Shown here piece after piece: positions 8,197 through 61,196 of a stretch of 64,000 nucleotides of DNA. Source of the stretch: Kappaphycus alvarezii (lineage: Eukaryota; Rhodophyta; Florideophyceae; Gigartinales; Solieriaceae); NCBI GenBank assembly GCA_002205965.3, contig NADL03000459.1:124001-188000 (forward strand). Reading direction: 5' to 3'. Each line of letters opens with the position of its first letter. Position 1 is the stretch's first letter. The notes below the pieces were generated by a model, which had not been told where the DNA came from, searched no databases, and worked only from the letters and a program-made list of their open reading frames with translations. Both the position numbers and the translations under genes were made by a program.

Positions 8197-8452
8197 TCGT
8201 AGCAGGATATGATTGTGACTTGACGGATGGTTTGCAATGATTGAGTCGGCGGCATTTACTACAAGCTTGCAGTGAATGCGTCGAGGACGAGATTCGGGAC
8301 GACACGCAAAACCATAACGGATTGGAACTGGCATCACAGAACTCGTAACACGGCAAAGACGAATTGAATGACGTCGAGAAGAAACCATTAGCCTCTAGCA
8401 GATGTATAGCATGCATAAAGGCACAGTCAGGCCAGTTACGAGAGACGCGTGG

Positions 8453-40801: not shown

Positions 40802-40846
40802 GTCACCATGGCAAAAAGGGTGTTGTAGGTCTACTACTATACTGTA

Positions 40847-40864: not shown

Positions 40865-41594
40865 TTGTCTGAAGTAGTTTCAGAGTGAATAAAGTAAAAG
40901 GAAGCTGTAGAACAAATAATTACTCTGCAGCATTGGCCACTGTCACGTCATTGCCATGGCCAAATGAAAACTGCCCAACTCCGCAGTCCTTGCTGTCGAA
41001 GTACACGAACTTCGGAATCTTTAACAGCTTCCTGAGTGAATTTTTAAACCGAGATGCTAGCGTTTTTAGGATATTACCAATCTGCTTACCTTCGTAATGG
41101 AGAATGTGGGCCATTCCAATCAAATGGCGTTGACTGCGATAGAGGAATGTGCAAGTCATGCCTGTGGGATCAAAGAAGGTAACTGACATCAAGGAGATGC
41201 ATGTCTAGGGAAGCGAATGATAGTGTGGTTGTTGACATCTTGGTTGAATACAGCAAGCTGTTTGGAGTCAGTAGTTGAGCCAATTTCGCATATTGGAAAT
41301 CTACAAGTTGCTATGTATGTGAAGACACAGTCACCACAAGAGGAGAAAATGCTGCATAAGATTATGAGAACTGCAATTAAGGAGCCTGAGGGAACTATTA
41401 GAAATGGTGGGTGTGTTAATCAAAATGGCAATGCCATAAATTATGGAGTTCGTCGGGACGAAAAAGGTCCTCTTCGCATCTTGAAATCCGTCCTTTACCA
41501 ATCGTCCTGCCTTTGTCTTTCCAAAACAAATTCTGAATATCTTTTTCCTTTATGAATCCAAATTCACTGTACAACTCCATTTTCTATTTTATGT

Positions 41595-41786
41595 TTGAAT
41601 ATTTGGTCCTCCTCCTTCAAAGAAACGCCTTTCAATTTGTGGTCACTTCGCCTCCCAAATTCAGTTCCGATATTTTACCGCGCAGATTTTTATGTAGCCT
41701 CCGAATTCATGCAAATCCAAGGCCGCAGTATCGCCTATTTATTTTACCAAGACCATGATGATTACCAAAGACATGCCCCTATTTAA
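41595..41786 (+). other. Short open frame conserved in the duplicated segment
   Basis: This 63-codon frame (MNIWSSSFKETPFN...) is also open at 60,619-60,428. Almost every difference between the two copies changes the residue. It therefore looks like duplicated leader DNA rather than a selected protein. It lies about 100 bp upstream of the acidic-tail frame in both copies. Confidence 0.3.
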
Positions 41787-41893
41787 AGTGCTATAGCATT
41801 GTCGCTGAAGCATCACTCCTACCACCAACAATTCGATAAGCTGATTACCCTTTCTGTCAACATCCGCAACCCGCTCGCCCCTTTTCCAGAAAT

Positions 41894-42415
41894 ATGACGT
41901 CAAATCGACCCTCTGTTCCTATTTCCAAAAACCGCCCTTCCCGTCCCATCAATGGCCTCCGTCTCGCCGCCTACGGGCCAACCGATGCCGACGACTACAT
42001 CCGGCGGCAAACTAAGAAGAAAATCATCGAGTTCGTTCGCCGCCTCTTCCCAGAAGAAGAGGCGAGGGAGGTAAGTGAGGATGAGACTGAGAAAGTCGAG
42101 GATGAGAGCGGGGACTCCATCGAGGAATGGGTAGCCCCTGAGCTGGTTTACGAGACTCAGGAGAAGGATGAGGAGAACGGAGATGGGATGGAAGATCGGT
42201 CCATAGGGGAGGAGGTGAAAGTGCAGGAATTGGACCGGAGCTCCCAGAACTTTGGGGCGGGACGGGAGCTAAGAATGGAGGACCAGGTGGTATCGGTCAT
42301 AGAAGTGGATAAAGATATCTTCAGTGGTCTAGAGATTTCAGGAGAGGCCACAGGAAGCTGCGAACCGCTCGACGGGATATGTGTGGACTGTATGGGTAGC
42401 ATGGATATTTTGTAG
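41894..42415 (+). CDS. Unknown acidic-tailed protein of a duplicated repeat-flanked element (copy A)
   Basis: A basic N-terminus (MTSNRPSVPISKNRPSRP, then RLAAYGPTDADDYIRR and KKKIIEFVRRLFPEEEA) is followed by a long Glu/Asp-rich tail and a Cys-containing end (CEPLDGICVDCMGS). The same protein is encoded at 60,320-59,662. The first ~45 codons are identical in protein but differ at silent sites, which points to selection on that part. Family 2 terminal repeats lie upstream and directly downstream. A perfect splice donor, GGAGGTAAGTGAGG, is conserved in both copies near the EEEA coding sequence. I recognise no family. A passenger gene of a non-autonomous retroelement is one reading. The element is treated as a fossil. 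Confidence 0.4.
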   Translation: MTSNRPSVPISKNRPSRPINGLRLAAYGPTDADDYIRRQTKKKIIEFVRRLFPEEEAREVSEDETEKVEDESGDSIEEWVAPELVYETQEKDEENGDGMEDRSIGEEVKVQELDRSSQNFGAGRELRMEDQVVSVIEVDKDIFSGLEISGEATGSCEPLDGICVDCMGSMDIL

Positions 42416-42514
42416 GAGCTGCTCGGTTCTAGCCTTGAGAATGAAGATTGTGAGGAGTAGATGTAGATATTTATTGGATATGTCTTATTGCTAGTCTCTA
42501 TCGTCCGCATGATT

Positions 42515-42883
42515 TTTAGAGCATTTTATGGTATTCAGTAGGCGTTTTTGAGACTTTGGGATTAGCTGAAAAGTCTATATAAGCTGAGAAAATTGCTTCC
42601 TCCTTGAAAGCAAGTTGGCAGAGAACCTCAAGTCAGTCCCAAATAGTTAGGAAGTTGAGAGTCAACTTAAGACCCAAGAAGCATTTATTTTACGCTAGTC
42701 ACTGAGCATAGGTGGTGGATCCTACCCCTTTTATACTCACTCATCGCCCTTGAACTGTCGTCCTCATTCACCTCCTTTGGTTCTCACAACTATACCACGG
42801 TAGCACTTTTGTCGCTTGCAACACCTCCTTCTTGGGGTAACTGGTTCTAAGGATCTCTTCCCCCCGCCGATTTATTCCTATCA
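42515..42883 (+). repeat. LTR-like terminal repeat, family 2, copy c
   Basis: This copy shares the promoter-like AGTCTATATAAG (42,571), AGTCAACTTAAGACCCAAGA, TTTATTTTACGCTAGTCA, ACCACGGTAGCACTTTTGTCG and the end CCTATCA with copies a, b and d. It begins about 55 bp after the end of the acidic-tail frame. The same distance relation is seen in the copy at 59-60 kb. Confidence 0.6.
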
Positions 42884-42987
42884 GGGTTACGAGTGTTTTA
42901 TCAAATGTTACGAGCTCAAGGCCTACTGTATATCTGAGACCGACAACATTTACCAATAACAGGACCCAGAACATAACTATACAGGAA

Positions 42988-43095
42988 GCTAGTGTCCCGC
43001 CCGGTGACCAGGACGATAACATCCCAGCTGCTGTCCAGGGGGCCAGCATCCCACCGGGTGTACAGGATGCCAACGTCACACTCCCTGTATATCAC
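42988..43095 (+). repeat. 27-bp tandem repeat, four units
   Basis: Four degenerate 27-bp units (42,988, 43,015, 43,042 and 43,069) carry a GCYAGYRTCCC...CAGGA core. In one plus-strand frame each codes nine residues of the type ASVPPGVQD. The same ASVP text is produced by the palindrome copies elsewhere in the large element (WDASVP at 44.5 and 49.7 kb). Confidence 0.65.
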
Positions 43096-43399
43096 GTACC
43101 GGAGCAAATTGTCGCCTTTGGAATATCTTTACGAATGGATACATCAGGGGTATCATCTCATTGTAAACTGTTAAACCTTCCTTAATTGAGACTTTTAGTG
43201 ACGGTATTGCTGAAGATATAGTAACAAAGTTTTTCAACAATTTCAAGAACCACTGTACCGAAATGGGTGAGTCTGTGCATGGACAGCAGTTCAAAAGTCT
43301 GATACCACCTTTGTTGAAAAATAAGAGTATATCAATAGCAACCGGTGCTTTGAGGAGGAATGAAGAGAAATCGTACAAGGTATTACCCGGAAGAATAAT

Positions 43400-46300
43400 T
43401 TGAGAAATGGGGATCGGGAAGAAGAGCAAGAATTCTAGATTTGGGAATGTCGCATTGATTCTCGCCTTATTGGAGAACGAACCACAAGGTGTCAATGTCA
43501 GAGGTGTTCTGAAGAAATTTGCGAAAGGGGTATTCGGTGCGAAGAAATGTGCTTTATTTAAAAGAGATGACCTCTCCTTTTGCAAAAGAGAGCGTAATAC
43601 CTGTAACTTTTATGAACCAAGCCATCATTATCCTGTGAAATGTATTTGGAAAGGAAATTTAGACCCTTTCATGACATTTCTCATGGGCAAGGACGTCAAG
43701 CATGGTGATATTGCGTTTTTTTTGTAGTGAGGGAAATATTTAGTTCAATAATTGGTGTACCCCCCAGCGAAGCATTGGGAAGACCTGTTGCGGTACCTAA
43801 GGCATTAATAAGTCGGGTTCAGGTACTTGGGGAATATGATGCTGTATTAGGAAAGGACATCATTGTGGAAGAAATGTTCTTCCCCAAACTAGAGGTTTCT
43901 CGGAATACGTCAACTTTGGATATTGCACACTGCAGTTTGTTATGTGACTTCAAGTGCAGTTATTTACAGGCAAAAGAAATACCCGAAGATATATAGAATA
44001 TTGAACTCACTGTATCGGATTGGGGTAGGCATAGAGTAGCGGCGAAATACAGGAAGCAACATTTTGAAGGAAGGAGCCCTAATAAAGTGGAGTATCTGGA
44101 ATTATGTATTGGGTTTTTCTGGCAGAACAAACACATAAGAGCATAGTGGGATATGCGAAATTTATCGAATGGTGGTGATTTATTCACTTGCAATGGCGTG
44201 TTTGGATGGAAATGGTTGATCTGTAACGATTAGAAATGTCACGAAAAAGTTTTGATATTACCGTGGTCTGCAACGAGAATTATTCCTACGTTATCTGTTA
44301 CCCAATTCTGGTCGCTCCGGAATCGGAATATAATTTCTTCAACTGCAATCAGGACTATCAAACGTTAAGCATACAAAGTTCGTCCTCGGATTCTTACTGA
44401 GATGTAGGAATACCGGAGTGATTGTGACCAACAAGAATGTGACACAATATCATGCATTATGACGCAATTTATTATACAACCGCAAGAAAAACGACTGGAC
44501 GATAATAGTATAGTTGAAGATGTTTGGGACGCCAGCGTTCCAGGAACCGAACTGTCGCAATTGGTAACCAAGCGTGTAAGTCGATGTTCTCTGATTCAGA
44601 CGTGGAGTGAATGGTAAGAAAATTGACTTCATCTTGCTTCAGACGCAACTAAGTTCTCGATCGGGAAATGAATCTAGAGATGTGTTCTGGTGGTCTCTTT
44701 ACTACAGAGCAGAGCAGAGTAGGTCCTGGGCATGGTTTGGGGGGTCGGAAGAGGGGAAGGAGAGCAGTTCAAAGGAAAATTGAAATCCGCAAATGGACCA
44801 AGACATTAAGTGGAAGTATTTGTTGGTATTGGTGGTGGGGACGTCCGCAGCTTTGTGCCCAGGTTTTCTCAGAGCATGGGAACAAATGTGAACCTACCAA
44901 GAAATTGGGAGGAGCAAATTGAGAAACACTTTACCAAGATCCTCCGTATTCTACGTTCAACATGGGAAATGTTTCATGTGATCACAGACGTACCGTTCTT
45001 CTCTATTTGCATGGTGATGCCGTTTTCTCAGGTCAGTTTGACGGCAACTGGTACGAATAAAAACGTAATATCATTATGGATTCAATCGGATAGCGTGCTT
45101 AATGGTCACATGTGGGTCGGACGAGGTTTCTTATTGCTGGGTACTTGGAAGAAGAATGCATTCATGTTACGGCGGCCTTTGACCTATTCACAGATCTCGC
45201 TGCTAAATTGCAAATGTCCAGTCTCCAGATTGGATGATACCTGGCCGAGGCTTATGCTCTTCGTAACATCTTCACTCGAGAAGAGTTCATCCAGAAATGT
45301 CCCACGATAACGAAATTTCATGACAATAGTACGATCATACTTTTTACAACCGTGAAGATTAGAGCACATATCGACGCGGCACTAATTCCTGTGCGTTACT
45401 TTGAGAGGCGTAGAATATTTTTCTGTGCTTTCTGCGATACGAGAAGAAGTGGATGCTGTGCAAAAATTAATGAGGCGCAGAGGATCCGCTCCGAGGCATA
45501 AGTGGATCAGGTTGCTCATTTCCTGAATGGGGACGATGTGTTACAAGACTCCAACATAGAAGAACAAGAGCAGGGCGTTATTGTCCTGGTTATGGAGGAC
45601 CTAAAACCAAACGGCAATGAGCATACTACGATAGGGAGGGTTAGTTATCAAACTCAGTCGTATCTTGCTTTAGAGTCGGTTAATTATATACGATATATTG
45701 AGATCGACACGGCAATTTGCCATTCTGTTCGGAATCGTAATCCTTATATCATAAGAGCACCTTCGCGGTGCTCTACGTGTGGAAAAGAACCCCTGGAAAG
45801 GAGAGAGGTGCAAAGCACTAGGTTTATATTATGCACTCTGGGTCCATGTGCATTCCATATTAAATATTACACAATTTCCGACTGTTCTATAATGATGGCG
45901 CCCAAAAGGCGTGATGAATGCATTCTATTTCTAACTTAAACGACTTACGCATGTTTTTTACAGGTGCAATTGGAAGCTGTTTCAATGGGTAACGGAATGA
46001 TATCTGGAAGACTCAAGGAGTATCATCCTCATGTTATATCGCTGATGCACTCAGGTGTGCTACCAACTGCACCTTTTTGCCGCTCAGTGAAATCAATGCG
46101 GAAAATATGCAATTTGATGCTGCGCTTGATGACGAAAGAACCTGACCAGAACTTATTAGAATGATCGAAATGCAAGAAAAGGGGCAGGATTCTCGCAATA
46201 TGTGTCGATGGAATATTACAGTGATTCTCGAAGAAAAAACAATTCCCTTTCTCGATTGTGACCGGGCCATATGGTCCTATTCCACCTTTCTGTACCGTTT

Positions 46301-46745
46301 ATAACGGAAGCATGTACCATCCCAAGGCTAGGATCATCAGGCGGAAGAACACCGCCGTATTATTTCTGAAAGTATTGTGCGGTAAACACATAACTGAGGC
46401 GAGGGAAAAACTTTGGGATATAGCCTCATCCATGCGCATTATCAAAACTGCAATTTTACCGCCTCAGTTCTGCCCCCTATCTGTTTGTGGTTGCACACCT
46501 GGAGATTCCCTTAACGATTTAGGCGTTGCTGTTTTCCTTGTCTCCCTCCATTCTGTCACAAACTATCTCTTCCACAGGGCGACAATGGAAATTCGATTCC
46601 TCTTACCCCTTCAAGAACTTGTAAGTACGCTCGCTGCAACAACCCATGCTGATCTGTGTAATTTGAGAGTCCTTTCGCAATTCCGTTATACTTCTATTGC
46701 TGAAACCATACACTTTAGGCTGCGTCATTTACAAAAGGCTTACTA
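43400..46745 (+). pseudogene. Degenerate plus-strand coding region of the large element
   Basis: A chain of open stretches (43,407-43,727; 43,727-43,996; 44,810-45,310; 45,502-45,939; 46,258-46,746) has coding-like composition. Two Cys-rich sites (CAFCDTRRSGCC near 45,423; CSTCGKEPLERRE near 45,769) could be zinc-binding. KDZ transposases carry long N-terminal regions with Cys-rich domains, so this may be the N-terminal part of the transposase or a separate gene. No family assignment is made for it on its own. Confidence 0.35.
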
Positions 46746-46999
46746 GAGCATTATTCTTAACGGTATTCCGAGGGTTCTTACAGTGAAAAACAATACTGGT
46801 CGATTCACGGAGGGAACTCTTTGAAATGTTCGCCATGTTTTTCCAAGTAGCTATCACACAGTTTGTTCGGAAGACTGACGTAATATCCTTGGAGGTGATA
46901 GGTATGATTTGTACAGAAGTATAGGGACCTGAAATTCTCGTCGATACCATTCGGAACCAATCGTCGCCCTCCTCCAGACTTGAGTCTCATCAAACGAAT

Positions 47000-47955
47000 G
47001 TATTGGTGGTACCACGCTGTTTAAAAGCGCGCTTATACAGCGTATCGGCTATTGAATTAGACCATGCGATGGCTGGATCAGCAATTCGAAAGATATTAGG
47101 GACCATGTTCCTCACTGAGGTTTCTTTTTTGCGTTATTTCTGCTTGCACTATGATGCATCACTGCGTCGAGGATCTGCTGTTGAGTATTCCAAGACATGG
47201 AAGAGTACGAAGCGATAATAACTGGTACACGTCATGCAGACAAAACACAGAACCACAGCATCCCCATCCAACTGAGAATTGGATAGAGCTTTGAAGACAG
47301 GTAGTTTATTTTCTGGTCGCACCCAATTTTGTCTATTGCCGTTTAACAAATATGAGGTGCTGGACTCGGAAGATGCTGGACTCGGACCCTGCTCCAACAA
47401 GTACTTGCATACACAGAACTCCTTCACGCTAGGTGAACTTACAGGTACGTGTTTTTGTGCAAATACGATTTGTTTCGGGTTCAAGGTGTTGTATAGAAGG
47501 GAGAGACCGAAAGTCGTAATGCCCATGTTAATTGCACACTTTCCGGAATTAACTAGATACGTAGTGTACGATTTCGCATGCGTAATTTATGCCTCTTCTG
47601 TTCACATCCTTTGCTGGGCTTTATAAGGCACTATTTGATGTCAGAAAGGTTTAACGTTGGGAACCACAGTTCACGTTCTCCAAGTTTCATGCCTGCTGTG
47701 CACGTTGGACTGGACTCATGTAATTCAGTTTCACATGAACAAAGGAACAGGGGTGTAAAATTTGTATGCAGGACGCTACATAACAGTGGTTTAGAGCTGT
47801 ATGCATCTATCCTAGCGTACAATTCTATGGTATTCAATATCATGGAGAAGTCGAAAACCACGGAAGTGTACCAAAATACTTCGAAGTCCTTCCATGAATA
47901 TGATTTGCTCTGGTTCTATTTCACTTGTCTTAACAATAAACGTCTGTGCTGCTGA
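47000..47955 (+). pseudogene. KDZ-like (Kyakuja-Dileera-Zisupton) transposase core, degenerate
   Basis: Plus-strand stretches show CSNKYLHTQNSFTLGELTG, CFCANTICFGFKVLYRRERP, AHFPELTRYVVYDFACVIYA and then FNVGNHSS, with EQRNRGVKFV farther on. In KDZ transposases the same order occurs: C.K.......TPG.....C.HGI..GF..L...E, then FP.....V.YD.AC, then a D.FH...H..C segment and an EQ.N motif. The order and spacing agree, but the frames are broken and key positions differ. KDZ elements are known from fungi, algae and fish. The function would be cut-and-paste transposition. Confidence 0.45.
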
Positions 47956-48159
47956 ATTTGAGGTTAAAAATGGGAACAACCACCATTAAAATGTAAAAAG
48001 GTTCCTTAGAAGGTCATCTTCTACTACGGCTACGGTAGCCTGTTTTATCTTTAGCTGAAAAATATGTCAGAGCGACCCAACACGAAACTATTAACTGAAA
48101 ATGGGCGGGAGAACCATTAAAAACGATACATTGGTGCTTTCCAAGTGATCTAAAACGGG

Positions 48160-49735
48160 ATAGATTTAATTTATATCATGAGATAGTGAAAAGTATCCAC
48201 GAAGCGACACAGATGCCCCTACAGTCAATTCCCTGCCCCCGCGACACATGATACACCACTGACTTTCAAACCTCTGAAAACAGAGAGCAGCTAAACCGAA
48301 TAGCATTGCAACGAGTGATGAATGCGTTTGATCCGATACAAGAGAGGACACTTGCATTGGCATGGAACGGAACTTCGTTAGCTCTATGCGGTGGTGCTGG
48401 TAGCGGGAAGACGTAAATGTTGACACAAATACTGAATGACTCTCTCAAGTGCCTCGAGCAGTTCCCTGTTGTCGCTGTATGTGCGGTATCGAATAACGCG
48501 GCCGGGCGAATTGGGGGATGTACTATCCACTCTATGTTCGGTAACCCTCCTCATTGGACAATTCTGAATGAAGAGCTGTCATAAATCACGCTTCGAAGTG
48601 AGACACGATCGTCTCAAATTATAAAGATGAAGATTCTCGCAATTGAAGAGTGTAATTTGCTAAGCTCTGGTGTTATGGACTCCATTGATTGGGTGCTAAG
48701 GGGATTTTCTCCCTGTGATCAAAGTGCAAGGCTGCAGTTTGGAGTGCGACAAGTGATTTTCTCAGGAGATACATTTCAACTGGAAGCTATTCAGCAGGAT
48801 GATGTAACAGGAGAGGACAACAGAAAATGTATCTATTCGGAAGCTTGTACTTGAAATTTGGGACTTTCGGATCTGGTATCACGCTGGTAATGATAAACGA
48901 CTACCGTCACAAATCCGACCCATCTTCTTTTGTCTTCTGGAGCGAGTTCGCATGGGTCTAGAAACCGTTAAAGACTTGAATCAAGTTAATTAGAGGATTA
49001 TTAGTAATGCAGACTTTCGAATTCGCAGTCGACCGTGTCTATACGTTCGGCAAGTGCGTGACATTAACAATTCTATAACATCACGCCTTCCAAGTCGGAT
49101 GTATGTATCCAAGGCTGTGGGCTGTTACAAGTTTCGCACTGATAATGTCGAGAGGAGGCTTCGCCACGCGGCGGAGAGTACTGACTTTGAAAGTGGGCTG
49201 TGTTGTGATCTTGACTCGGAGGATTGGCGTATGGGCACCGGGGTGTCAATGCATAATCAACTGCTTCGTCATTGAAAGGGGTCTTAGGGTGGTGATTATG
49301 TGCACTCCTACCTCTATTGAAGGGTCCTACATTTCTCAATACCCCGTATTACATTCTGTTCGTGGTAGACGTGATGAAAGTTTTGCATCTCGACTGCAAT
49401 TCCCCGGTATCCCTGTGTATGCATTGACGATTCATAAGTCACAAGGAATATCAATACCAAGGTTGGCAGAGCAATTCAGCCGTGATTTGAAATGGATGCC
49501 TCCAGGTATGATAAACGTTGCACTTTCCAGATGCATATCTCTCAGTGGATTGTGGGTGCGGGACCTCTCCCGCGAACTTGTGCGAGTGAGTCCATATGCG
49601 TTACAGTTTGAAAAGAGGATTACATACCAGCGCCTGAAGAATCCACACGGAGTTCTTGGGAAAAGATTATTTGTGGATGGGAAACGGAAAAAGGTAAAAA
49701 GAACCCGCAAGAACATGGAAAATGGAAAAGTATGA
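48160..49735 (+). pseudogene. PIF1-family DNA helicase of the large element, degenerate
   Basis: The ATPase motifs occur in the correct order on the plus strand: Walker A LCGGAGSGKT (about 48,382-48,413), a second block AVSNNAAGRIGGCTIHSMFG (about 48,481-48,540), Walker B ILAIEECNLLS (about 48,633-48,665) and VIFSGDTFQLEAI (about 48,752-48,790). At the end come ALTIHKSQG (about 49,421-49,447) and INVALSRCISLSGLWV (about 49,511-49,560). This is the SF1B PIF1 signature. Breaks interrupt it between the N-terminal and C-terminal halves. The C-terminal stretch (49,103-49,735) is open for 210 codons. PIF1 helicases are common cargo of large eukaryotic mobile elements. Confidence 0.75.
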
Positions 49736-49744
49736 ATCAACTCT

Positions 49745-49760
49745 GGGACGCTAGCGTCCC
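49745..49760. repeat. Perfect copy of the 16-bp palindrome
   Basis: GGGACGCTAGCGTCCC lies just after the helicase frame ends. It is the only exact copy. Variants occur at 44,526, 50,049, 50,505, 55,224, 55,275 and 56,097. Confidence 0.7.
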
Positions 49761-50159
49761 ATCTGCACGGAAAATGTCGATCAAATCTAGGACACTCTCG
49801 CCTCATCCGCACCGACAATCTGAATCTCTCGGGGAGACTCGAGTCCCATCTAACACAAAAAATCTTGTATGGGTCCCTATAATACGAGATTACGAGATGC
49901 TACCGTATGTGTACCGGACAACAACGTAATATGAAAAGACGGGGATACAGTGTCCTGGTGTATGTTCAACTACGTAAATTATGGAACTTGACAAATTTTA
50001 AACCGCCAGTTTCTCAGTGATAGCACACCTATTACAGAGTACATTCCCGGGACGTTAGTGTCCTGCGTTTTTACACTAGAAACTCTCATATACAGTGATC
50101 TGCAGTGCGCAAAACCCAAAAAGCTTCTTTTAGGATCAGTCACGAATTCACGTTTCATG

Positions 50160-51269
50160 AATAAAAATTGGCTTCATTTGCCTTCATCGCCGCCATAGCT
50201 TTCATAACTCCCATCATCACTATCTTCACCACCCTCCTCATCGCCTTCGTCGCTCTCTGAATCGCCCTCCGAAATATCTTCATCACACTCCTCATCGCTA
50301 TTTTAATATTGCATCTCATCCTTTTGCGCCGTGGGAATACCTTTAATGTCGTCAGTGTCATATTTCTCTCCAGACGCAGGGGTTTCTGACCTGTCTTTTT
50401 TGCGTTGCACATCTATGTACCCCACAGAATCATTGGATTCGGAATCAACTCTCTTCGGGACGGCGGTCGGATCAACAAATTGCGCATAAAAGTCGCTGGT
50501 TTGTCGGACACCAGCGTCACAGATGCAGGGATGGTAACTTCAATAATATGATTGCGGTTCTCCACAACATTACGGATTTCAAGAGCTTCGCATAGCGTAG
50601 TTTTGAAGCGCATGAGTTCAAATGATACTTTCTCACCAGGAAGGAGCTCTCACTCTGAATCTCACTCATTTCCGACATGTAAAATTCCAAGGCTTATAGA
50701 TTCTGAGCAACATTCCTGTGAACTGCTAGAATACACTCCAGATGCGGCTTAAGCATTCAAATTCCATTATTTGCTTCTTCGCCGCCACATTCAACGTCAA
50801 AAATGCACCAAGTACCCATTCTTGAATCAGGCCTGACTAACTCAATTGGAAGGTTCACAGTAAAAGCCAAGGTACCTTCGACAATTAGAATGTCGCCACT
50901 ATGCATCCTGAAACTCGTCTGTTCTTCAGTGTACAAGGCACCACTAATGCAGTGTATTCCTATTGATACAATGCATTAGTGGTGCCGTGTTTAGGGTGTG
51001 TAAGTCTTGAGAACTGGCGACCGTGATATATGCGAGTTGACTTTTCACCCCTTCGTCGAAGGGGTCTTCACCGCTTGAACCAATATAAAAGAATTCGCGA
51101 AAGCATGACATCGGTACATCCCTGAAGTAGCTGTTTGATAACCCGCCGTTACCATTCACGATGAAGTTAGGCACAGAAGTGCAGAATTTCCTATCAATTC
51201 CCCCTCAAATAACCTCATTGACGGTTCCCATGGTATAGACGAGGGTGATTCCTTCCAGTGAAGGGTATC
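50160..51269 (-). pseudogene. Minus-strand gene with acidic tail in the large element, unknown
   Basis: Minus-strand stretches with coding-like composition run through here, for example FIVNGNGGLSNSYFRDVPMS, a segment with MGTWCIFDVECGGEE, and a long Asp/Glu/Ser tail (DEECDEDISEGDSESDEGD). A further stretch of similar type (55,240-54,915) lies on the far side of the inserted Harbinger element. The original gene therefore probably spanned the insertion site. No family is recognised. The frames are broken. Confidence 0.35.
50937..50986. repeat. 50-bp hairpin
   Basis: GGCACCACTAATGCA pairs perfectly with TGCATTAGTGGTGCC. After one mismatch the pairing continues with TGTAT/ATACA, leaving an 8-nt loop. 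It lies inside the minus-strand coding remnant, which argues for a late insertion or an expanded structure. Confidence 0.7.
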
Positions 51270-51510
51270 TAAGAGCATCCGCACCCGCAGTCTAAAAAAC
51301 CCTTCCAACAGCCCATTTGGAATTGAACCTCAGAAAAACTCACGCACCCGTAAATTTTCAAAAAATTTCCAACTAAAAATAGTTAGATTTAGAACATGAT
51401 TTTAAAATTCGATGTCCAACGAATGGCTCATTGCACATCGATATCCAAACGGGAAACTAAGAAGTAATCGACCCTAAGTCGCGCTATTCATTTCCTGCCA
51501 ATATAATGGA

Positions 51511-52569
51511 GTGAAATGCTGGACATACTTCTTTGCACAGATGATTCTGTTGAACCGAACGTTTATTCTCTTGAATCACACTTTGGCCTTCGAGTTCGCT
51601 TCTTCAGAAACAAGCGCTGAAAAATGGGCACATGGAAAGGATAGTCGTCGGAGGAAACTGTCGCAGCATGAAAAGCATATGTATCGGCTTCCGAAGATCC
51701 TCGCTCAAGCAGCGAAAAGAAGAAAGAGATCTTCCATAAGCAAGTGCAGGAGCTATATACGGAGTTTATAGTGAACGTCAAAACTAGGAATGCTGAAATG
51801 GACTATGTGGAGAGGACGGGTGATGCCATAGTTCAACGCCATCGCAAAGCTCGTTGCGAATGCATCATGTTTGAAGGAATAATACGCTCAATAAAGGCAA
51901 AAAAAACAACGGGAAGTCCGACAGAAGAAGAATTTTTCCGGGATGCGACGGCTGCGTACAATGGGGATGCTTTAATATCTAATAAGTACACTTTCCTACG
52001 AGATGTGAGTGAAACTATCGTACCAATGTTCAAGTTTATAGAAATTTTTCATTTCTTTCGATCTACTGAGGCCTGGTCGTTGGTTGTAGCATCCAGAAAC
52101 CCTGCGGACACCACCAATCCTGGAACTAATAACTCATCCGTAGGCCCGGTTAATTCAGGCAATACCTATGGTTACGGAAAGGTTTTTTGGTGGTAATGAA
52201 GATAATAGCGCTCTGGAAAGGACAATTCATGCAAGCAGAAACTTTTTAAGTGGTTCAACTGCCAAAAAGGAACATCCTGTTGGGAAGAGGAGAGCGCTGG
52301 AGATATCTTATCTGGTGTCCGCACTCCGATAAGGGGCGGATAGAATTGAAAAACTTACTGTAGCTTCCGAGAAACGAGTGAAGCTGCAACAGAGGATATT
52401 GGAGATTGAAGAGAAGAATTCCATGATTAATTCGTTCTCCATGCATGGTACTGACGTCGATATCAGAGCAACGTTCATTCACTTAGCCCAGAAAAAAGCG
52501 CTGCAGTCCATTGAATACAAGCTTAAAACCAGGGAACTCGAGGCAGGAAAAGAACAATCAAGGAGTTAA
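51511..52569 (+). pseudogene. Accessory (Myb/SANT-type?) protein gene of the Harbinger element, broken
   Basis: Plus-strand stretches at 51,511-51,771, 51,744-52,196 and 52,378-52,569 give EEEFFRDATAAYNGDA, an Asn/Gly/Ser/Thr-rich linker, and a final coiled-coil with KLQQRILEIEEKNSMINSF and a Lys/Glu-rich end. A DNA-binding head, a flexible linker and a C-terminal coil match the layout of the Myb-like partner protein that escorts Harbinger transposases. No Trp-containing Myb repeat is clear. The assignment is mainly positional. Confidence 0.45.
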
Positions 52570-52899
52570 TTGTTGCAAGTAATACCGTGTCGCCTCCAAG
52601 ATAACAAGTTAAAGTCTCTTCGGAACATTTCTGTCCCTCCGTTGTAAGCTTGCTCAATTAGAAATAAGAAAGAATTATAAGAAAGAAACCCAACTTGGCT
52701 CTCCTGTGGTGCACGAAGTGTAGTTCATGTAGGCTAGGTGTTGCCTTTCACATCCTAGAGGTGGTCAAGGAGGGCCTTTGTGAGCTTCGTTTTTAAGCCA
52801 ATAAGCTTAATGTCGTCAGAAATGACATGCTTCATGAATCACAACGCCATTTCCAATTCGCCTAAGGGCTTTACAACAATTTCCGTTGTGTCCTGAGCA

Positions 52900-53902
52900 A
52901 TGTAGAATGATTCGCGTATTCCGCCAACCCAATCACTCCCTTAACTTTCTCTTCTAGATTCCACAACCATGTTGTGCAACACGATCGCAGCCTGAGCAAC
53001 TGACTTCATGATAGCGACAGACCAAAGCTCGCTGGGTACAAACATAATTTTGAATCTACAGAATGGGATACCGAACAAAAGTTCAACTCACTTCCGCGAT
53101 CCTTCCTTCCTGGCTTTGAACCAGTTCAAACGCGTTGTACCGACCTCTGGAACCGACTTGGTGAATATTTTCCATGAGGAAGAGATATTGTCAGTAAGGG
53201 AGTAGTACCAATGAAAGGCCTTCCCGATATAGTGTAGCTCGGCTTGACCTGAGAGAACTCTCCTTCCAGTACGCGGTTGAAGTGATTACCCACTTCCAGT
53301 ATAGTGAGATCATTAAATGCCCCAGGCAACCCAAAATGAAAAGACCAAACCCATAGACCTAAATAGCATATTGCCTCCATTCAGACAGTTGGTTCCCCGT
53401 CCTTGCGTTTCATGATTCATTGTAGGACAGTGGGACAATTCATCCAAGACCAACTAGCACAATCTAAACATCCGATGCATCCTGGAAAGCCGGCCCGTTC
53501 AAACTGTCTCTCGACTCGTCCCAAGTCATCAGCGTTTTGCTCCCTCAGATAGAAATTTCCAAAGAAAATAAGCACAATTTTACAGAAATCCTGAAGGAAC
53601 TTACGCCCAGTAGTTTCCAATTAATTAAAAAAGTCTTCAGACAGGTCGTAAGGAATTCAATTCGCGATTTGCCGCAGAGCGCACATAACTATAACCAATG
53701 GTGAGATTCCCATCCTCCCAGCAGCATACAGTTTTAAGCCCTGACGCACGTAAGCAGATTGGGCAGCTAAGTTTTCAAATATCCTGTTGAAGACAGACCG
53801 AGACATGCGAAACCTCCTCTCAAAAGATTCTTCGAACTGCTCAGGGCCCACTTGAGAAGTTTCGGGCCTGCATTTGTCGTGCGGCCAGAAATATTTTACC
53901 AT
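52900..53902 (-). pseudogene. PIF/Harbinger transposase (DDE_Tnp_4), frameshifted
   Basis: Minus-strand stretches in order: FRMSRSVFNRIFENL (53,902-53,657), RAGFPGCIGCLDCASWSWMN with the first catalytic Asp (53,620-53,417), then LGLWVWSFHFGLPGAFNDLT with the second Asp (53,380-53,126). Near 53,075-52,960 comes VELLFGIPFCRFKIMF with the catalytic Glu, followed by SVAQAAIVLHNMVVES. This is the DDE_Tnp_4 layout (GS.DC..W.W, then LW.W...FG.PGS.ND, then VE..FG.L..RF, then ILHNM). At least three frame changes or stops separate the pieces, so it is a pseudogene with all catalytic blocks still visible. Confidence 0.75.
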
Positions 53903-54059
53903 GTAGTTGTAGTGCGCTCCTTCAAAGTTTCGCTGAATATTTCCAGATTTCCCGGGAAGTTATCCGCCCCTCTGGTGCTTCCTGGCTGTCAACAATGCCA
54001 TGGAAGCCATATGAAACCATAGTTCAGTACTAAGTGCTTCGCTGTTGTCCTCCTCAGCT

Positions 54060-54885
54060 GCCTTGCAAAAATCAAACAAAGCAGACATCAAGAACTCCTG
54101 TAACAGGACAGATGACCTCCAAGTTAAGGGAGAAGGTCAAATGTTTTAAAAACATTTTGGTCCGAGCTTGAAATTTTGTTCCTTGAGAGACCGCGCTTCC
54201 CCTATCCTGCAGGAGCCTTGAAAAACTCTTCCTAAGCAACGTAGTGCGCGTCTGTTGACGCAGAAAGCAGCACGGGACGAGAATGGCGCCGGTATCTAGG
54301 GTATAATTGGCCTGCACAAGTATCAACGGATTGTTTTTCTTCTTGACGGAGCAATACACTCACGATGTTCACGTGCGCGTCCAAAATCTCTGTGTTTCCC
54401 TCCCGAAGAAGCTTCCTCTACGCGAAGAGCAAGCGCGAGAGGCCCAAATGTTGCACAGAACGGAGTGAAATAGGAGGGGTTGGGCTTCGTATTTTGGGGC
54501 GAAATGGGAAGGTGAGCAAAGGGGGGCTTGAAGGGGACTGTACAATCGAGAGTGGCGAGAGTATGGTTTGGAGGGAGCCAAAGGGGATGGGGGACGCAAT
54601 TAAAGATAGGGAGAGAAGAGGGAGGGGGCGATGACGCGGCTTGAGAAAATGAGCGTGTCGAGGAAGGAGGTGAGCGCGGCTTTGTCCTATGCAATATGGA
54701 GTGGCGGTCGCATGGGGGCACTGTCCAGCTACTCTGTGATAGAAAGTGTGCGGTTTTGATTGCGGGTGCGTCGAAGCGATTTACAACTAAAACTATTGAC
54801 AGAGACAATGCACTGAAAAATAGAATGCGTTTCAAGATTAAATTTGTCCAATGAACTCAAAATTCTTGGCATTATAAGAACGCGA
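54060..54885. other. Harbinger right flank, no supported gene
   Basis: The minus-strand frame 54,835-54,323 is Pro/Ser-rich and C-rich. It lies upstream of the transposase and probably represents promoter and leader sequence rather than a protein. Nothing else is supported here. Confidence 0.35.
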
Positions 54886-55223
54886 TTTTAGAATGCGGGC
54901 GCGGATGCTCTAATCATAAACAATGTCGCATCGGGGTCAGTGCTCAGATGAGAGACGTAAGGATATCTCCACGCATTTCCCAAAGCCGCTTCATGTTCCC
55001 AATCGCGAGTGACAAGAAAACTGGCGAATGGATCCGTGTCATTCTGGAACAGCTCAGACTCCGAACTCAAACATCCCCCAACGCTCTCCTTCTCCAAATC
55101 TTGAAACCGTTTGCATTGACTTTCCGGGTCGTAAATATTGAGCCCAACTCTTTTTTCTTCTTATTGCCTATAGAACGCATCAACTCATTGAAAACTGATA
55201 TCGAAGTCACGATGATGCCGCAA

Positions 55224-55290
55224 GGAACACTAGCGTCTTACGATTGAATGGCCCTCGAATAACTAAAAGGGAACTGGACGCTAGCGTCTC
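55224..55290. repeat. Two variant copies of the 16-bp palindrome
   Basis: GGAACACTAGCGTCTT (55,224) and TGGACGCTAGCGTCTC (55,275) lie 51 bp apart, just beyond the minus-strand coding remnant. The core CTAGCGTC is kept in both. Confidence 0.5.
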
Positions 55291-55299
55291 GGAATACGG

Positions 55300-56450
55300 A
55301 AGTGGTGCGGGTGGAGCTTAGGACAGCCACGCAACAGAGAGCAGCGTATGTAAGGCTGCGGGAGGCTGTAAGAAACGATGGGCAATGACGTGGAGGGAGT
55401 CGCAAAGAGCACTGGAAAAATTTGAGAAGCGGATTATTGTGACCTTAAACGTAGGTAGGAACGGAGGGCGGTCAGAAAGTCGGAAGTTAGTTAGGGAATG
55501 GGTGACAGTGAGGAAGTGAAAAGATGAGGGAATTGGGGTGGGTGTGGGGAAGATGGGGGGGTCGTACGTTAGATGCGGTGGGTGAATCAGAAAGTCACAG
55601 ATAAGTGGCAGGGGTGGCACTACTGTGGCAGGGTACAGTTACAAAAACTATGGCGCTTGTTCGAGAAGATTGCACGCCGCTAGTTAGTACGCATTGTTTT
55701 TCGCCCTTTCAGATATTCTGCTCAGCTCTTGTCCTCATGGTCCAGCTTTATATCTTCACAATTTTTTAAATTTTTTTGTTGTACACCTCACAGTACAATT
55801 ATTGCCCTCAGGGCGAGGGAATAGCTTTTCACGGCGAGGAATGACTCAAAAAACTCTGTAAACCCCCATATCGTCATCAAAAAACCTCCTCCCTTATTCT
55901 GCACCTCAAGTACTGCAGGCTACACTCCCTTGAAATTCACCACTCATCTGCCAGCTCGGCTCACATCACACAGCCAAAGCCCTCAGATGCCCTACTCACT
56001 ACCTGCTCCAACACTCTCTCTCACATTCCCATCACTCTAGACCGCTCTCCACCACACCCTCACCTATCTTCACGCAGAAATAATCCCCCATATTTCGGGA
56101 CGCGAGCGTCCTTCTCTCCATCTGTCAACCTAATTATAGAAACGAGCTTCTTTCCTTTCTTTCATCCTTAGCATCTACCCATTCCATGATGTTACATCGT
56201 CCAAAAACCAACTGGAAGCTCATCATGAAGCGCGCCCGAGACGAGCATGACGGAAAGATTGGTGTCGGACCAGAGGAACGCCCGAGGAGGCCATTGAGAG
56301 TGGAAGTGATTGAAGATTCCAATTCGTAAGAGGACATTACCGCAGTTGTTGTACGTCGTTCAGGTCAGGGTATTCGATCGGGTGAGTTGGGTCACGTGGA
56401 CAAAGTACTACTCCTATTATCTCCCTGATAGCGAACGATCCTGATATGGA
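55300..56450. other. Right part of the large element, little coding evidence
   Basis: A GGGACGCGAGCGTCCT palindrome variant lies at 56,097-56,112. The plus strand from 56,185 reads MMLHRPKTNWKLIMKRARDE, a basic start of a ~50-codon frame with no recognised domain. The minus-strand frame 55,620-55,318 is Pro/Phe-rich and unlikely to be real. Confidence 0.3.
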
Positions 56451-56455
56451 AGTGG

Positions 56456-57005
56456 GTGGCGTTTTTTTTTGAGTGCTTTCCATCTTTCAGAAGACTCATT
56501 GAATCGAATCAAGGACCCGTGGGATTGCTTGAAGACATAACATTGGACGTCTTCAGTTGTTTGTTGAAGAAAAGGAACAAGAATCGGTTCGACACAGAGG
56601 GAGGTCTTCGTGTGCTCATTTGTTCATCCATTTCATGGAAATGAAACCATACGTTTACGGAAGAGTAAGAGGGTGGATGAAAAAAATCAATCTTAATATC
56701 GTAGAAGTAGCCGTATTTGTGTTCCCAATGATATTTAGTTACTTGCATTGGGTAGCTGTGATGATGAACGACTCCAAACGTGTTATCATTATTCCGCAGC
56801 ACAGAAAGCATTTTTTCTCTGAAAAGCTGTAAATAGTTCGTCGATCCTTTCTTGACGATGCCAAAGATTGGAATCAACATTAAGAGGAGAATTCTGAGTC
56901 GGCGATATGAGGCGTTCATGATATTGACGATTGGCCTGTTTTTGTCCAGGCTGGGTATCCCAAACGAACGGACGATGGTTCACGTGGAGTTTTTGTGCTG
57001 TAAGT
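56456..57005 (+). pseudogene. Ulp1-like (C48) cysteine protease remnant
   Basis: Plus-strand pieces give SYLHWVAVMMNDSKRVIII (about 56,739-56,796) and, near the end, VQAGYPKRTDDG...GVFVL (56,945-56,998). In Ulp1/SENP and adenain-type proteases an HW..... block with a following acidic position is succeeded by a Q/PGYPKQ.D...CGVFVL block at this distance. The frames are broken and the gene is dead. Ulp1-like proteases ride in several classes of large DNA transposons. Confidence 0.45.
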
Positions 57006-57905
57006 AGTAAAATATCCAGAGAGAGGTGCAACCCCAACTTTTAAACAATCCTACATAGGGCTTTTACGCAAGCGTACGTATTTATTCCTCCGTGGGTACG
57101 ATCATTATGGAAACTGCACCCCGCCGGCCGCCAAGGGACGCAGTGATTGAAACGAAGCATCATCCAGGAATAGTGTTATGGAGGAGATGGGGATATGGAG
57201 GAAGTAGGGAATATAGAGGAAGTGGGTGGTAACAGTAATAGGGCTCAGGAAGAAAATGGCGGAAACACAGACAAAGTGGGAAAGTCGAACATGCGGGTTT
57301 GATTCGTTGTCCAGTCGGAAGCCCCGAGTTTACGTCTCCCACGCGCTCAGTGTACGCTGTAAAATCGACTTCGAACTTTATTAGCCCTGGCTGAGATGCT
57401 CCTTCGCGACTGGGAACCTGGATGGTGTTCAGAATGCCGTACGACGACATGACGTTTCAGTCACTTCCTTTTACCCTTTGAGGTACCAAAGCGCTTTTTT
57501 GTTCAGGTTAGAGTGGTAGAGAAACCCTAGTCCCTCGGGCGTAGTCGCTGTCTGGACGAAGCACAAAATGGGCACAAGAACCCAGAAGTCCCTCCGGGAT
57601 GCACCCTTTCTCCCTCTTCTACTCGGGGAGTCGGGTATTTTTTTAGGTAATTTTCTGGTTCAGACGTGTCTGTCGACACCCTGGACCTGTGCTGCCTCTC
57701 TCCTGCGGTCAACAGTTGTTGTCGATATACAAATCAATAAAAAAATTGATTACCACACATACGTATTATTGTTGTACTTATCCAAAGCTTTGTGACTCTT
57801 TGAGGAGGCATGAGTTATTTGGAAAACACGTGCAATAACGTAAGTGTGTCACTATTAACATTCTCCCAAGACTCCAATCTTCCGGCCCTATTCCGTCTCC
57901 CTTTT
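57006..57905. other. Gene-free stretch
   Basis: The minus-strand frame 57,450-57,160 (MSSYGILNTIQVPSREG) and the frame 57,712-57,527 have no recognised domain. Part of this may be repeat DNA, but no second copy is present in the window. Confidence 0.3.
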
Positions 57906-58328
57906 TGAAACAGAAAGGGAGGCAACCTGGGCGCTGCGAAAGGAGCAGTAAATACGATGGTAGTGGGTTTCAGAGAGTTGGAGGCAAAGGGTGTGTGGAG
58001 TGTACCTGGATTCCCACAAGAATCCAGAAGGGCCCCCTTCATATAGAAAGTACTGTAGCTCTACTCTAGAAATTCTATACTTTTTAGCATAGTAAAACTT
58101 ACTAGAAAGTAGAGTTGTAACTATAGAATTATACTAACTTGAATAGAACTGAGCAAATAAAACGATGACATGGGGCTCCACGTCAAAAAAAACATTGAAG
58201 GAAAATCAAACTTCTACATTCATTCAAGAAGATTCAGAGTCTCTGTTAAACCACTGTGTAATAGAGGACTGGAATAACAAAAGAGAAAAGTCTCTATTAC
58301 ACAGTGGTGTAACAGAGACATTGTTACA
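57906..58328 (-). repeat. Solo LTR, family 1, with target duplication CTTTT
   Basis: This is the reverse-oriented match of the solo LTR at 33,574-33,990 over its full length. It has the same tips (TGTAACAATG at the right, TTTCA at the left) and CTTTT on both sides (57,901-57,905 and 58,329-58,333). There is no internal region. An inverted repeat near the 5' tip (GTCTCTGTTACACCACTGTGT and its complement) is shared by both copies. Confidence 0.85.
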
Positions 58329-59218: not shown

Positions 59219-59600
59219 TGATGGGGATAAATCGGCGGGGGAAGAGGTCCTCAGAACCAATTACCCCACGAAAGAGGTGTTGCAAGCGACAAAAGTGCTA
59301 CCGTGGTATAGTTGAACGAACGAAAAGGAGTGGATAGAGAAGACAGTCGAATAGGCTACAAGCAAGTATGGAAGGGGCAGGGTGTACCACCTATGCTTAG
59401 TGACTAGCGTCAAATAAACGCTTCTTGGGTCTGACGTTGACTCTCAACTTCCTAACTATTTGGGACTGGGCTTGAAGCTGTCTGCCCACTTGCTTCATCT
59501 CTCCACGAGGAAGCAGTTTACTCAGCTTATATAGACTTTTGACTACCCCTAAAGTCCAAACAAAACTACAGAAGGTACCAGGAAATGCATACAAACAATT
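59219..59600 (-). repeat. LTR-like terminal repeat, family 2, copy d
   Basis: This is the reverse orientation of copies a-c, with the same ACCACGGTAGCACTTTTGTCG, AGTCAACGTCAGACCCAAGA and TATATAAG blocks, ending CCCCATCA at 59,219. It lies directly downstream of the second acidic-tail frame, as copy c does for the first. Confidence 0.6.
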
Positions 59601-59661
59601 TGTGTGGATGATACACTCTAAACAAAAGATACTTAAGAAACTAACAATCAATGAGGTCCTC

Positions 59662-60320
59662 TTATTTCCCATTCTCTAAATCAGATCCAAACAACTCTTC
59701 TAAAATATCTATGCTGTCCAAGCAGTCCCCACAAATATCTGCGAACGGCTCATAGCTCTCTATTCCCCCCTGGGAGATATTTAGACTGCTAAAGATATCT
59801 CCATCCGGTTCCATCGCGGGCTCAACTTGATCCCTACTCTCCATCACAGGCCCCACCAGTCCAACACTTTCCATGCCCCCTGTTCCGTCATCCTCCTTCT
59901 CCTCCTCCTCCACCACCACCACCTCCTCCTCCTCCTCCTGTTCCTCCTCCCCATCCTTCTCCTCCTCCTATTCCTCCTCTTCCTCCTCCCCATCCTTCTC
60001 CTCCTCCTCCCATCCTCCTCATTTTCCTCCTGTTCCTCCTCCCCATCCTTCTCCTGAGCCTCGTACACTAGCTCAGGGGCTAACCATTCCCTGAAGGACT
60101 CCCCGTTCTCCTCCTCGACTTTCTCAGTCTCATCCTCACTTACCTTCCTCGCCTCTTCTTCTGTGAAGAGGCGGCGAACGAACTCGACGATTTTCTTCTT
60201 TGTTTGCCGCCGGATGTAGTCGTCGGCATCGGTTGGCCCGTAGGCGGCGAGACGAAGGCCATTGATAGGACGGGAAGGGCGGTTTTTGGAAATAGGAACA
60301 GAGGGGCGATTTGACGTCAT
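59662..60320 (-). pseudogene. Unknown acidic-tailed protein of the duplicated element (copy B)
   Basis: The N-terminal half (60,320 down to about 60,060) matches copy A (41,894-42,415) almost residue for residue. The C-terminal end near 59,790-59,662 corresponds to the Cys-containing end of copy A. Between them lies a tract of CTC/CCT repeats (about 59,885-60,050) that is absent from copy A. It may have grown from the Glu/Asp codons of the tail. Homology with copy A extends upstream to about 60,770. The copy is broken. Confidence 0.45.
59885..60055. repeat. CTC/CCT-rich low-complexity tract
   Basis: Long runs of CTCCTC and TTCCTC triplets are present on the plus strand (GAG/GAA on the minus strand), broken by CACCAC and CATCC. 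The tract is a trinucleotide expansion inside copy B of the acidic-tail frame. Plus-strand frames over it are artefacts. Confidence 0.7.
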
Positions 60321-61196
60321 ATTTCTGGAAAAGGGTGAGCGGGGTTGCGGATGTTGACAGAAAGGGTAATCAGCTTATCGAATTGTTGGTGGTAGGAGTG
60401 AGGCCTCAGCGACAATGCCATAGCACTTTAAATAGGGGCATGTCTTTTGTAATCATCATGGTCTTGGTAAAATAAATAGGCGATACTGCGGCCTTGGATT
60501 TGCATGAATTCGGGGGCATCATAAAAATCTGCGTGATAAAATATCGGAACTGATTTTGGGAGGTGAAGTGACCACGAATTGAAAGGCGTCTCTTTGAAGG
60601 AGGAGGACCAAATATTCAAACATAAAATAGAAAATGGAGTTGTACAGTGAATTTGGATTCATAAAGGAAAAAGATGTTCAGAATTTTTTTTGGAAAGACA
60701 AAGGAAGGACGATTGGTCAAGGACGGATTTCAAGATGCGAAGAGGACCTTTTTCGTCCCGACAGAGACCTGCGGACGAGTAAGATCCATCCTAATGCAGA
60801 GGTACCCAGCCGTCTCTTCCAATGCCGCGTGCCTCACGGCTGGCCTTACGCCAGTCCTGTAACAACGTCCCTATCCTGTCCGCTCTTCATGCTTAGGTAC
60901 ACTCCTTTCGGTTAATAACCGCCACTGTCTCTAAATTAAGAGGGAACGGTTTGGGTGTTTTACTCTTGGAAGATATATCCGATCTAAATTAATAAAGCAC
61001 CAAAGCTTTTCCCCCCTTGACTCCTTATCGAAGTCCCCATGTGGGCCGAAAATTACAGCCATACACTGATACGTAGCATAGCTCAGAAATGAGCAGCAAA
61101 ACTGAATGGTATTTCATAATTCTTTACGGAGGCTGGAACAGTGAGCTCTAGATGAAGGCTAGCAATAACTGTATCCCTGGGTAGATGGACTAATTC

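What the first reader, a model, noticed from the sequence alone, without database searches (positions are those of the whole stretch)
42984..57005. A giant decayed element combining a KDZ-like transposase, PIF1 helicase and Ulp1-like protease
Seen: motif series of PIF1 (48.2-49.7 kb), a CFCANTICFGFKVL...VVYDFAC series typical of KDZ transposases (47.3-47.9 kb), an HW...QAGYPKR...GVFVL series (56.5-57.0 kb), and a minus-strand acidic-tail gene. All lie in an interval marked by one palindrome family. Known: KDZ transposons are large and widespread in fungi, algae and fish, and PIF1 and Ulp1 occur as cargo of other large elements. Inference: these belong to one element class of ~10 kb (without the Harbinger insert) that may not have been described in this lineage.
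Basis: partly seen in the sequence, partly recalled or inferred. Interest (0 to 1): 0.8.

Follow-up and report, generated by a model that had tools for sequence, protein, structure and literature searches.

The report
Decayed large transposon with helicase, protease
A stretch of a eukaryotic genome holds the ruins of what may be one large jumping gene that carried a DNA helicase and a SUMO-type protease, but the claimed transposase type could not be confirmed, so it is an interesting fossil rather than a proven new element.

Summary
Two of its three labels hold. A broken PIF1 helicase lies at 48.2-49.7 kb (Pfam 1.6e-14). A broken Ulp1/C48 protease lies at 56.53-57.12 kb (Pfam 2.3e-4, above the curated cut-off); its catalytic Cys position reads Arg. 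KDZ is not confirmed: no KDZ or CxC family was listed in six frames at E<=1 or in targeted pieces at E<=10. What remains is a motif resemblance known only from recall.

The palindrome family is real: 11 of 12 sites with at most 5 mismatches lie in the interval, none in the Harbinger insert. The insert has TAA target duplications and interrupts a minus-strand frame. The large inverted repeats flanking the region look like two solo LTRs, each with its own 5-bp duplication, not element ends. No ends or relatives were found, and no genome is held, so unity of the element rests mainly on the palindromes.

Most likely: one decayed DNA transposon, roughly 10.6 kb without the insert, with an unclassified, possibly KDZ-like transposase.

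The parts
42982..43080 (.). Four units, 27 bp apart, each carrying a degenerate copy of the palindrome TGGGACGCTAGCGTCCCA
   Evidence: Sites 42982, 43009, 43036, 43063 with 5, 5, 6 and 6 mismatches; a period-27 tandem repeat at 43020-43072
43167..44617 (+). Decayed reading frame(s) of unknown family upstream of the transposase-like region
   Evidence: Frame 43167-43727 has 2 stops in 187 codons; 43709-44617 has 6 in 303, end stops counted. No Pfam match for P0002/P0003 at E<=10 (a Bcl-2_3 hit at 0.03 for a longer stretch is taken as noise); no PHROG match at E<=1
44525..44542 (.). Palindrome site, 2 mismatches
45238..46746 (+). Decayed long frame with cysteine pairs (CAFC...CC, CSTC, CTLGPC); possible N-terminal half of a transposase (inference)
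   Evidence: 5 stops in 503 codons against about 6% expected (frame picked after looking, and stop-poor stretches are common in the window). No Pfam match. AlphaFold pLDDT 33.7, not usable
47276..47955 (+). Transposase-like series CFCANTICFGFKVL...VVYDFAC...NSVSHEQRN, split over two frames; KDZ-like only by recalled motif
   Evidence: Motif coordinates; only noise in Pfam (DUF7789 and TMEM208_SND2, E about 0.03); no meaningful PDB relative (one lectin at E=0.054)
48225..48857 (+). PIF1-like helicase, N-terminal half (Walker A, GCTIHSMF, VIFSGDTFQL), interrupted by stops
   Evidence: PF05970 1.6e-14; PDB PIF1 5o6b 1.2e-10
49079..49735 (+). PIF1-like helicase, C-terminal half (ALTIHKSQG, INVALSRC)
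   Evidence: PDB 8bnv (named AAA family ATPase) 6.4e-7, PIF1 7otj 5.4e-6
49744..49848 (.). Perfect palindrome TGGGACGCTAGCGTCCCA (49744-49761) and two degenerate ones (49788, 49831) just after the helicase frame's stop
50048..50065 (.). Palindrome site, 5 mismatches
50174..51269 (-). C-terminal part of a decayed minus-strand gene of unknown family, in several frames, ending in an acidic tail (50207-50299)
   Evidence: Readings. The joined reading (55160 down to about 50560 kb, acidic tail not included) has no Pfam, PHROG or PDB relative; 50140-51271 with the tail gave only LAX at 0.67
50504..50521 (.). Palindrome site, 4 mismatches, inside the minus-strand gene
51273..54910 (-). Nested PIF/Harbinger element: TIR GAGCATCCGC..., TAA target duplications at 51270-51272 and 54911-54913, broken transposase
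   Evidence: Inverted pair 51272-51297/54886-54911; PF04827 in two frames; flank letters and empty-site reading
54914..55160 (-). N-terminal part of the same minus-strand gene, in frame with the other side once the insert is left out
55223..55291 (.). Two palindrome sites (55223 with 5 mismatches, 55274 with 4)
56096..56113 (.). Palindrome site, 4 mismatches, upstream of the protease frame
56533..57120 (+). Ulp1/C48-like protease, one frame with stops; catalytic Cys position reads Arg (GSRGVFVL)
   Evidence: PF02902 2.3e-4, 21.5 bits against cut-off 20.7; SENP5 alignment
41451..42883 (+). Left neighbour: solo-LTR-like unit (1433 bp) with imperfect 5-bp duplication GAGTT/GGGTT; not counted as part of the element
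59219..60763 (-). Right neighbour: solo-LTR-like unit of the same family (1545 bp) with exact duplication GTCTC/GTCTC; not counted as part of the element

Best explanation
The interval holds one old, inactive class II (DNA) element, roughly 10.6 kb without the later Harbinger insertion. It carried a DDE-type transposase of unsettled family (possibly KDZ-like), a PIF1-type helicase, a SUMO-protease-like (Ulp1/C48) enzyme and a minus-strand accessory protein with an acidic tail. Inferred working: the transposase cut the element out and pasted it in. The PIF1 helicase helped unwind or re-synthesise DNA during excision and gap repair. The C48 enzyme removed SUMO or a similar modifier from the transposase or from host repair and silencing factors. 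The repeated 16-18 bp palindromes, spread across the element, were binding sites for a dimeric element-encoded protein, either the transposase or a regulator. Shown: the helicase, the protease, the palindromes, the Harbinger insertion and the decay. Inferred: the single-element reading, its length, the transposase identity and every functional step.
For: PIF1 and C48 matches. The palindrome family exceeds shuffles at <=5 mismatches, is nearly confined to the interval (11 of 12) and is absent at that level from the Harbinger insert; 8 of 9 clusters within 13.1 kb, 6e-4 of uniform draws. With the insert left out, the minus-strand frame runs open from 55160 across the junction to a stop at 51205 and is open again from there to 50944, which modestly supports that the two sides were one gene. 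A former long reading frame at 45.2-46.7 kb has 5 stops in 503 codons. The large inverted repeats on both sides are independent LTR-like units, which leaves the block between them without a recognised boundary.
Against: No KDZ, CxC or other transposase profile match outside the Harbinger. No terminal inverted repeats: best score 24 against a shuffled mean of 23 and maximum of 31. No second copy in the window. No relative in viral contigs or in the prokaryote genome contigs, though these scans need exact 8-residue matches and hold few eukaryotes. Little but the palindromes and proximity ties the protease at 56.5 kb to the helicase at 48 kb. Some palindromes lie inside reading frames (50504; 42982-43080), and left-one-out matrix scores of several sites are no better than the null maximum.
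Confidence: 0.45

Rival explanations
1. Two or more unrelated decayed elements or pseudogenes lie side by side: a helicase remnant, a transposase-like remnant and a protease remnant from different sources. The palindromes belong to a separate short repeat that inserted several times.
For: The region is repeat-rich, with LTR-like units, a Harbinger and other dispersed repeats on both sides. No ends or copies define one element. PIF1 and C48 domains occur in many kinds of element (general knowledge).
Against: At <=5 mismatches 11 of 12 palindromes lie in this interval, on both sides of the insert. Their flanks as printed share no longer repeat, apart from the four 27-bp units.
Confidence: 0.25
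2. A giant EnSpm/CACTA- or Plavaka-type element of the sort reported in red algae, with PIF1 and C48 as accessory genes and a transposase too decayed to recognise.
For: PMC12477816 (passages) states that giant EnSpm elements with several accessory genes are reported in red algae. A PPR gene in one open frame and a Maf gene nearby would fit an alga (inference, weak).
Against: No EnSpm-type or Plavaka family listed in six frames. No terminal repeats. The organism is not identified.
Confidence: 0.15
3. A Helitron that lost its Rep endonuclease, with the PIF1 domain as the Helitron helicase.
For: Helitrons encode a PIF1-related helicase and can carry proteases (general knowledge).
Against: No Helitron_like_N match in six frames. 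The N-terminal half scores higher against canonical PIF1 structures (44.7 bits) than against the Helitron Helraiser (23.8 bits); the C-terminal half likewise (PIF1 5.4e-6, Helraiser 0.03).
Confidence: 0.05
4. The remnant of an integrated DNA virus or Polinton-like element: helicase, Ulp1/adenain-type protease, genes on both strands and palindromic signals.
For: The gene kit (helicase plus Ulp1-like protease) and genes on both strands.
Against: No integrase, polymerase B, packaging ATPase or capsid family listed above noise. No relatives in viral contigs. The protease aligns to a SUMO protease, SENP5.
Confidence: 0.07

Closest known systems
KDZ (Kyakuja-Dileera-Zisupton) DNA transposons
   Same: Large size, accessory genes and, by recall only, a YDxAC-type motif with cysteine clusters upstream. 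KDZ elements up to 30.3 kb, with nested insertions of other elements, are reported in Ectocarpus (PMC12477816, passages).
   Different: No KDZ or CxC profile match here. No TIR or 7-8 bp target duplication found (7 bp for Kyakuja, 8 bp for Zisupton and a Dileera family: PMC12730594, section 9 part 1 and passages). PIF1 or C48 cargo is not mentioned in the passages read.
Giant EnSpm/CACTA and Plavaka-type elements
   Same: Large elements with accessory genes in algae and fungi (PMC12477816, PMC12730594, passages).
   Different: No EnSpm or Plavaka transposase match and no recognisable ends here.
Helitrons
   Same: A PIF1-related helicase.
   Different: No Rep domain found; the helicase is nearer canonical PIF1 than Helraiser.
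Other DNA transposons with Ulp1 cargo (Ginger; plant cut-and-paste elements)
   Same: A C48 protease near a transposase. A Ginger paper and a grapevine paper mention Ulp1 (search listing only; the rest is recalled).
   Different: Those carry other transposases, none of which was detected here.

Membership tests
KDZ transposons | KDZ transposase domain (PF18758) | tested here: not met
   Not listed in six-frame Pfam scans at E<=1 or in targeted pieces at E<=10; HMMER's filters and the decay limit what a miss means
KDZ transposons | KDZ-associated cysteine cluster (CxC families) | tested here: not met
   Cysteine pairs are present at 45.42-45.85 kb but no CxC profile matches
KDZ transposons | YDxAC motif with downstream NS..EQ.N series (recalled) | tested here: inconclusive
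   VVYDFAC and NSVSHEQRN are present, but the motif comes from recall and no reference sequence was obtained
KDZ transposons | Element ends with 7-8 bp target duplications | tested here: inconclusive
   No TIR above chance between the candidate end regions; ends unknown, so duplications could not be checked
PIF1 helicases | PIF1 domain with Walker A and C-terminal motifs | tested here: met
   PF05970 1.6e-14, PDB PIF1 1.2e-10 and 5.4e-6; broken by stops and frameshifts
Peptidase C48 (Ulp1) | C48 profile above the curated cut-off | tested here: met
   21.5 bits against 20.7 for 56533-57120; a longer stretch, 56188-57150, scored 19.5, just below it
Peptidase C48 (Ulp1) | Intact catalytic triad (positions recalled) | tested here: not met
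   His retained (LHW); Cys position is Arg (GSRGVFVL); the YDS Asp of SENP5 aligns to no Asp
Helitron | Rep/HUH domain (Helitron_like_N) | tested here: not met
   No match in six frames
PIF/Harbinger (the insert) | DDE transposase, TIRs, 3-bp target duplication | tested here: met
   PF04827, TIR pair, TAA duplication

The most novel reading that the evidence does not exclude
An undescribed class of roughly 10-kb eukaryotic DNA transposons that couples a divergent KDZ-like transposase with its own canonical PIF1 helicase and a SUMO-type protease, and is marked throughout by a palindrome bound by its own dimeric protein.
Probability: 0.2. Interest if true: 0.6.

Novelty: new variant of a known kind. 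Interest (0 to 1): 0.4.

Why it matters
If the helicase, transposase-like gene and protease do belong to one element, it would be a DNA transposon that brings its own PIF1 helicase and a SUMO-type protease, which would make testable how large elements survive excision and host silencing. The palindrome gives a concrete tag for finding intact copies. As it stands only a fossil is seen.

Tried and rejected
Giant terminal inverted repeats: the 724-bp, 94% inverted pair at 41452-42175 and 60039-60762 looked like the ends of a 19-kb element. The full units start TG (CG in the left copy), end CA, and each has its own 5-bp duplication (exact on the right, 4 of 5 letters on the left), so they are read as solo LTRs.

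Helitron: thought unlikely because no Rep domain was found and the helicase is nearer canonical PIF1.

Fungal RIP: no TpA excess or CpG loss in the region, so decay by RIP is not indicated. An early guess at a truffle was dropped; the organism stays unknown.

Relatives: none with the KDZ-like piece in viral contigs (6 pattern matches, none confirmed) or genome contigs (18, none confirmed), none with PIF1 (no pattern match; 32 pattern matches, none confirmed) or C48 in viral contigs (1, not confirmed). These scans need exact 8-residue matches, so they would miss distant relatives. Two recalled KDZ motifs as DNA patterns gave 3 matches, all short chance-like frames, and 0 matches.

Structure: AlphaFold on single window frames gave pLDDT 43 and 34, not usable, so no fold search was run.

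The first palindrome scan had too strict a rule, listed 1 hit, and was replaced (42 hits). A first cluster count (1e-4) left out the outside site 36100 and the site 48599; one search puts both back (6e-4).

Literature: 0 papers held 'KDZ transposase' and 'PIF1' and 0 held PIF1, Ulp1, transposase and fung*; 0 held Rhodophyta, transposable elements, PIF1 and helicase. One paper holds both KDZ and PIF1, as separate expanded gene families in a fungus (PMC6396904, passage). PMC7473861 (Agaricus; KDZ and helicase) was listed but not read. One search, aimed at Academ elements, returned nothing to the point. Only open PMC papers are held; the founding KDZ paper, the Bostrychia red-alga paper and a Chlamydomonas paper are not.


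Full report
Observation. The strings named in the finding lie where stated. Six-frame Pfam scans of 42.9-57.3 kb with stops read as X gave PIF1 (2.5e-12), Plant_tran/Harbinger in two minus frames (2.6e-15, 4.6e-20) and a weak Peptidase_C48 (0.054). They listed no KDZ, CxC, EnSpm, Plavaka or Helitron Rep family at E<=1. Targeted pieces gave PIF1 1.6e-14 and C48 2.3e-4, the latter above its curated cut-off for 56533-57120 and just below it for a longer stretch. In the PDB the N-terminal helicase half matches PIF1 (1.2e-10). The C-terminal half matches an AAA family ATPase (6.4e-7) and PIF1 (5.4e-6). The protease matches SENP5 (0.0016). In that alignment the His is kept and the Cys position is Arg, so the protease copy is dead.

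KDZ. The 47.28-47.96 kb series, split over two frames, gave only noise at E<=10 (DUF7789 and TMEM208_SND2 near 0.03). The long frame at 45.24-46.75 kb gave nothing; it has 5 stops in 503 codons, but stop-poor stretches are common in this window, so openness alone proves little. By recall the VVYDFAC...NSVSHEQRN series and the upstream cysteine pairs resemble KDZ transposases. No reference KDZ sequence could be obtained, so this stays a lead. The decay, and reliance on one family model, make it a weak refutation.

Palindrome. A palindrome scan of the whole window listed 42 palindromes, among them TGGGACGCTAGCGTCCCA at 49744. With that core, 5 sites have <=4 mismatches, all in the interval, and 12 have <=5, of which 11 lie in the interval, 1 outside (36100) and none in the Harbinger. 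Shuffles give means of 0.12 and 1.05. At <=6 mismatches there are 25 sites (shuffle mean 8.7, largest 16), 14 in the interval and 2 in the Harbinger, so the signal is in the better sites. A symmetrised matrix trained on 11 sites gave left-one-out scores above the largest maximum of 60 null sequences (19.6) for 4 of 11, while 2 of 11 fell below the mean null maximum (13.1). All 12 sites joined into 9 clusters: 8 fall within 13.1 kb, reached in 6e-4 of uniform draws. The sites lie before the first frame, after the helicase stop, upstream of the minus-strand gene and upstream of the protease frame, but also inside frames (50504, 42982-43080).

Harbinger. The insert runs 51273-54910 with TIR GAGCATCCGC and TAA duplications. 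With the insert left out, the minus-strand frame is open from 55160 across the junction to a stop at 51205, and again to 50944. This modestly supports that the two sides were one gene. That gene ends in an acidic tail and has no relative in Pfam, PHROGs or the PDB.

Surroundings. The large inverted repeats on both sides are two solo-LTR-like units of one family, with duplications GAGTT/GGGTT (imperfect) and GTCTC/GTCTC (exact). They are not the element's ends. No inverted repeat above chance joins the candidate end regions: best score 24, shuffled mean 23, maximum 31. The left unit may have split the element, so it could extend left of 41.45 kb; palindrome-like sites at 41050 and 40141 (matrix scores 12.0 and 12.9) are within the null.

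Identity of the host. No genome is held. A PPR gene in one open frame of 847 codons and a Maf gene lie nearby, and CpG is not strongly depleted. An alga is a guess, not a result.

Mechanism. The most likely reading is one inactive DNA transposon with a DDE-type transposase, a PIF1 helicase acting in excision or gap repair, a C48 enzyme stripping SUMO from transposition or silencing factors, and a dimer-binding palindrome. The domain identities and the palindrome are shown; unity, transposase identity and function are inferred. The main rival is a chance cluster of unrelated remnants.

Literature. PMC12477816 (passages) describes giant KDZ and EnSpm elements with accessory genes and nested insertions in Ectocarpus and cites giant EnSpm elements in red algae. 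PMC12730594 (outline, section 9 part 1 and passages) gives 8-bp duplications for Zisupton and for a Dileera family and 7-bp for Kyakuja. PMC9297572 (passages) used PF18758 to place Zisupton elements. PMC6396904 (passage) lists KDZ, CxC2, Plavaka and PIF1 as separate expanded families in a fungus. PMC10045372, PMC8226300 and PMC11244446 were seen as passages. No held paper was found that joins a KDZ transposase with PIF1 in one element (open papers only). Large DNA transposons with accessory genes are thus known; this particular set would be a variant if proven.

Noticed in passing
41451-42883 (+) and 59219-60763 (-): Two solo-LTR-like units of one family with 5-bp duplications; further partial copies of the 3' part at 29156-29586 and 40522-40812. 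The right copy holds a TCC-rich tandem array (59891-60055) absent from the left.
   Followed up: yes
33574-33991 and 57905-58328: A second dispersed repeat, 84% identical and inverted, beginning TGTAACAATGTCTCTG; the right copy holds a 28-bp inverted repeat.
   Followed up: partly
18769-20609 and 23525-25214: Two diverged copies (34-67% protein identity in pieces) of an unidentified coding region in the AT-rich part of the window; a weak HTH_23 match (E=0.0068) lies at the end of the first.
   Followed up: partly
2961-4186 (-): Decayed transposase (DDE_Tnp_1_7, 6.6e-11; the piggyBac label is recalled).
   Followed up: partly
31.2-32.4 kb (+): Retrotransposon remnant (Pol_BBD 1.9e-9, weak gag_pre-integrs), Copia-type by recall.
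   Followed up: no
50933-50990: A 25-bp, 92% inverted repeat with an 8-nt loop inside the minus-strand gene, near where its reading frame shifts.
   Followed up: no
6205-12084 and 35403-36994: Likely host genes: an HD-domain protein, a Maf-like protein, a 847-codon PPR protein in one open frame, and an MFS transporter spread over two frames.
   Followed up: partly
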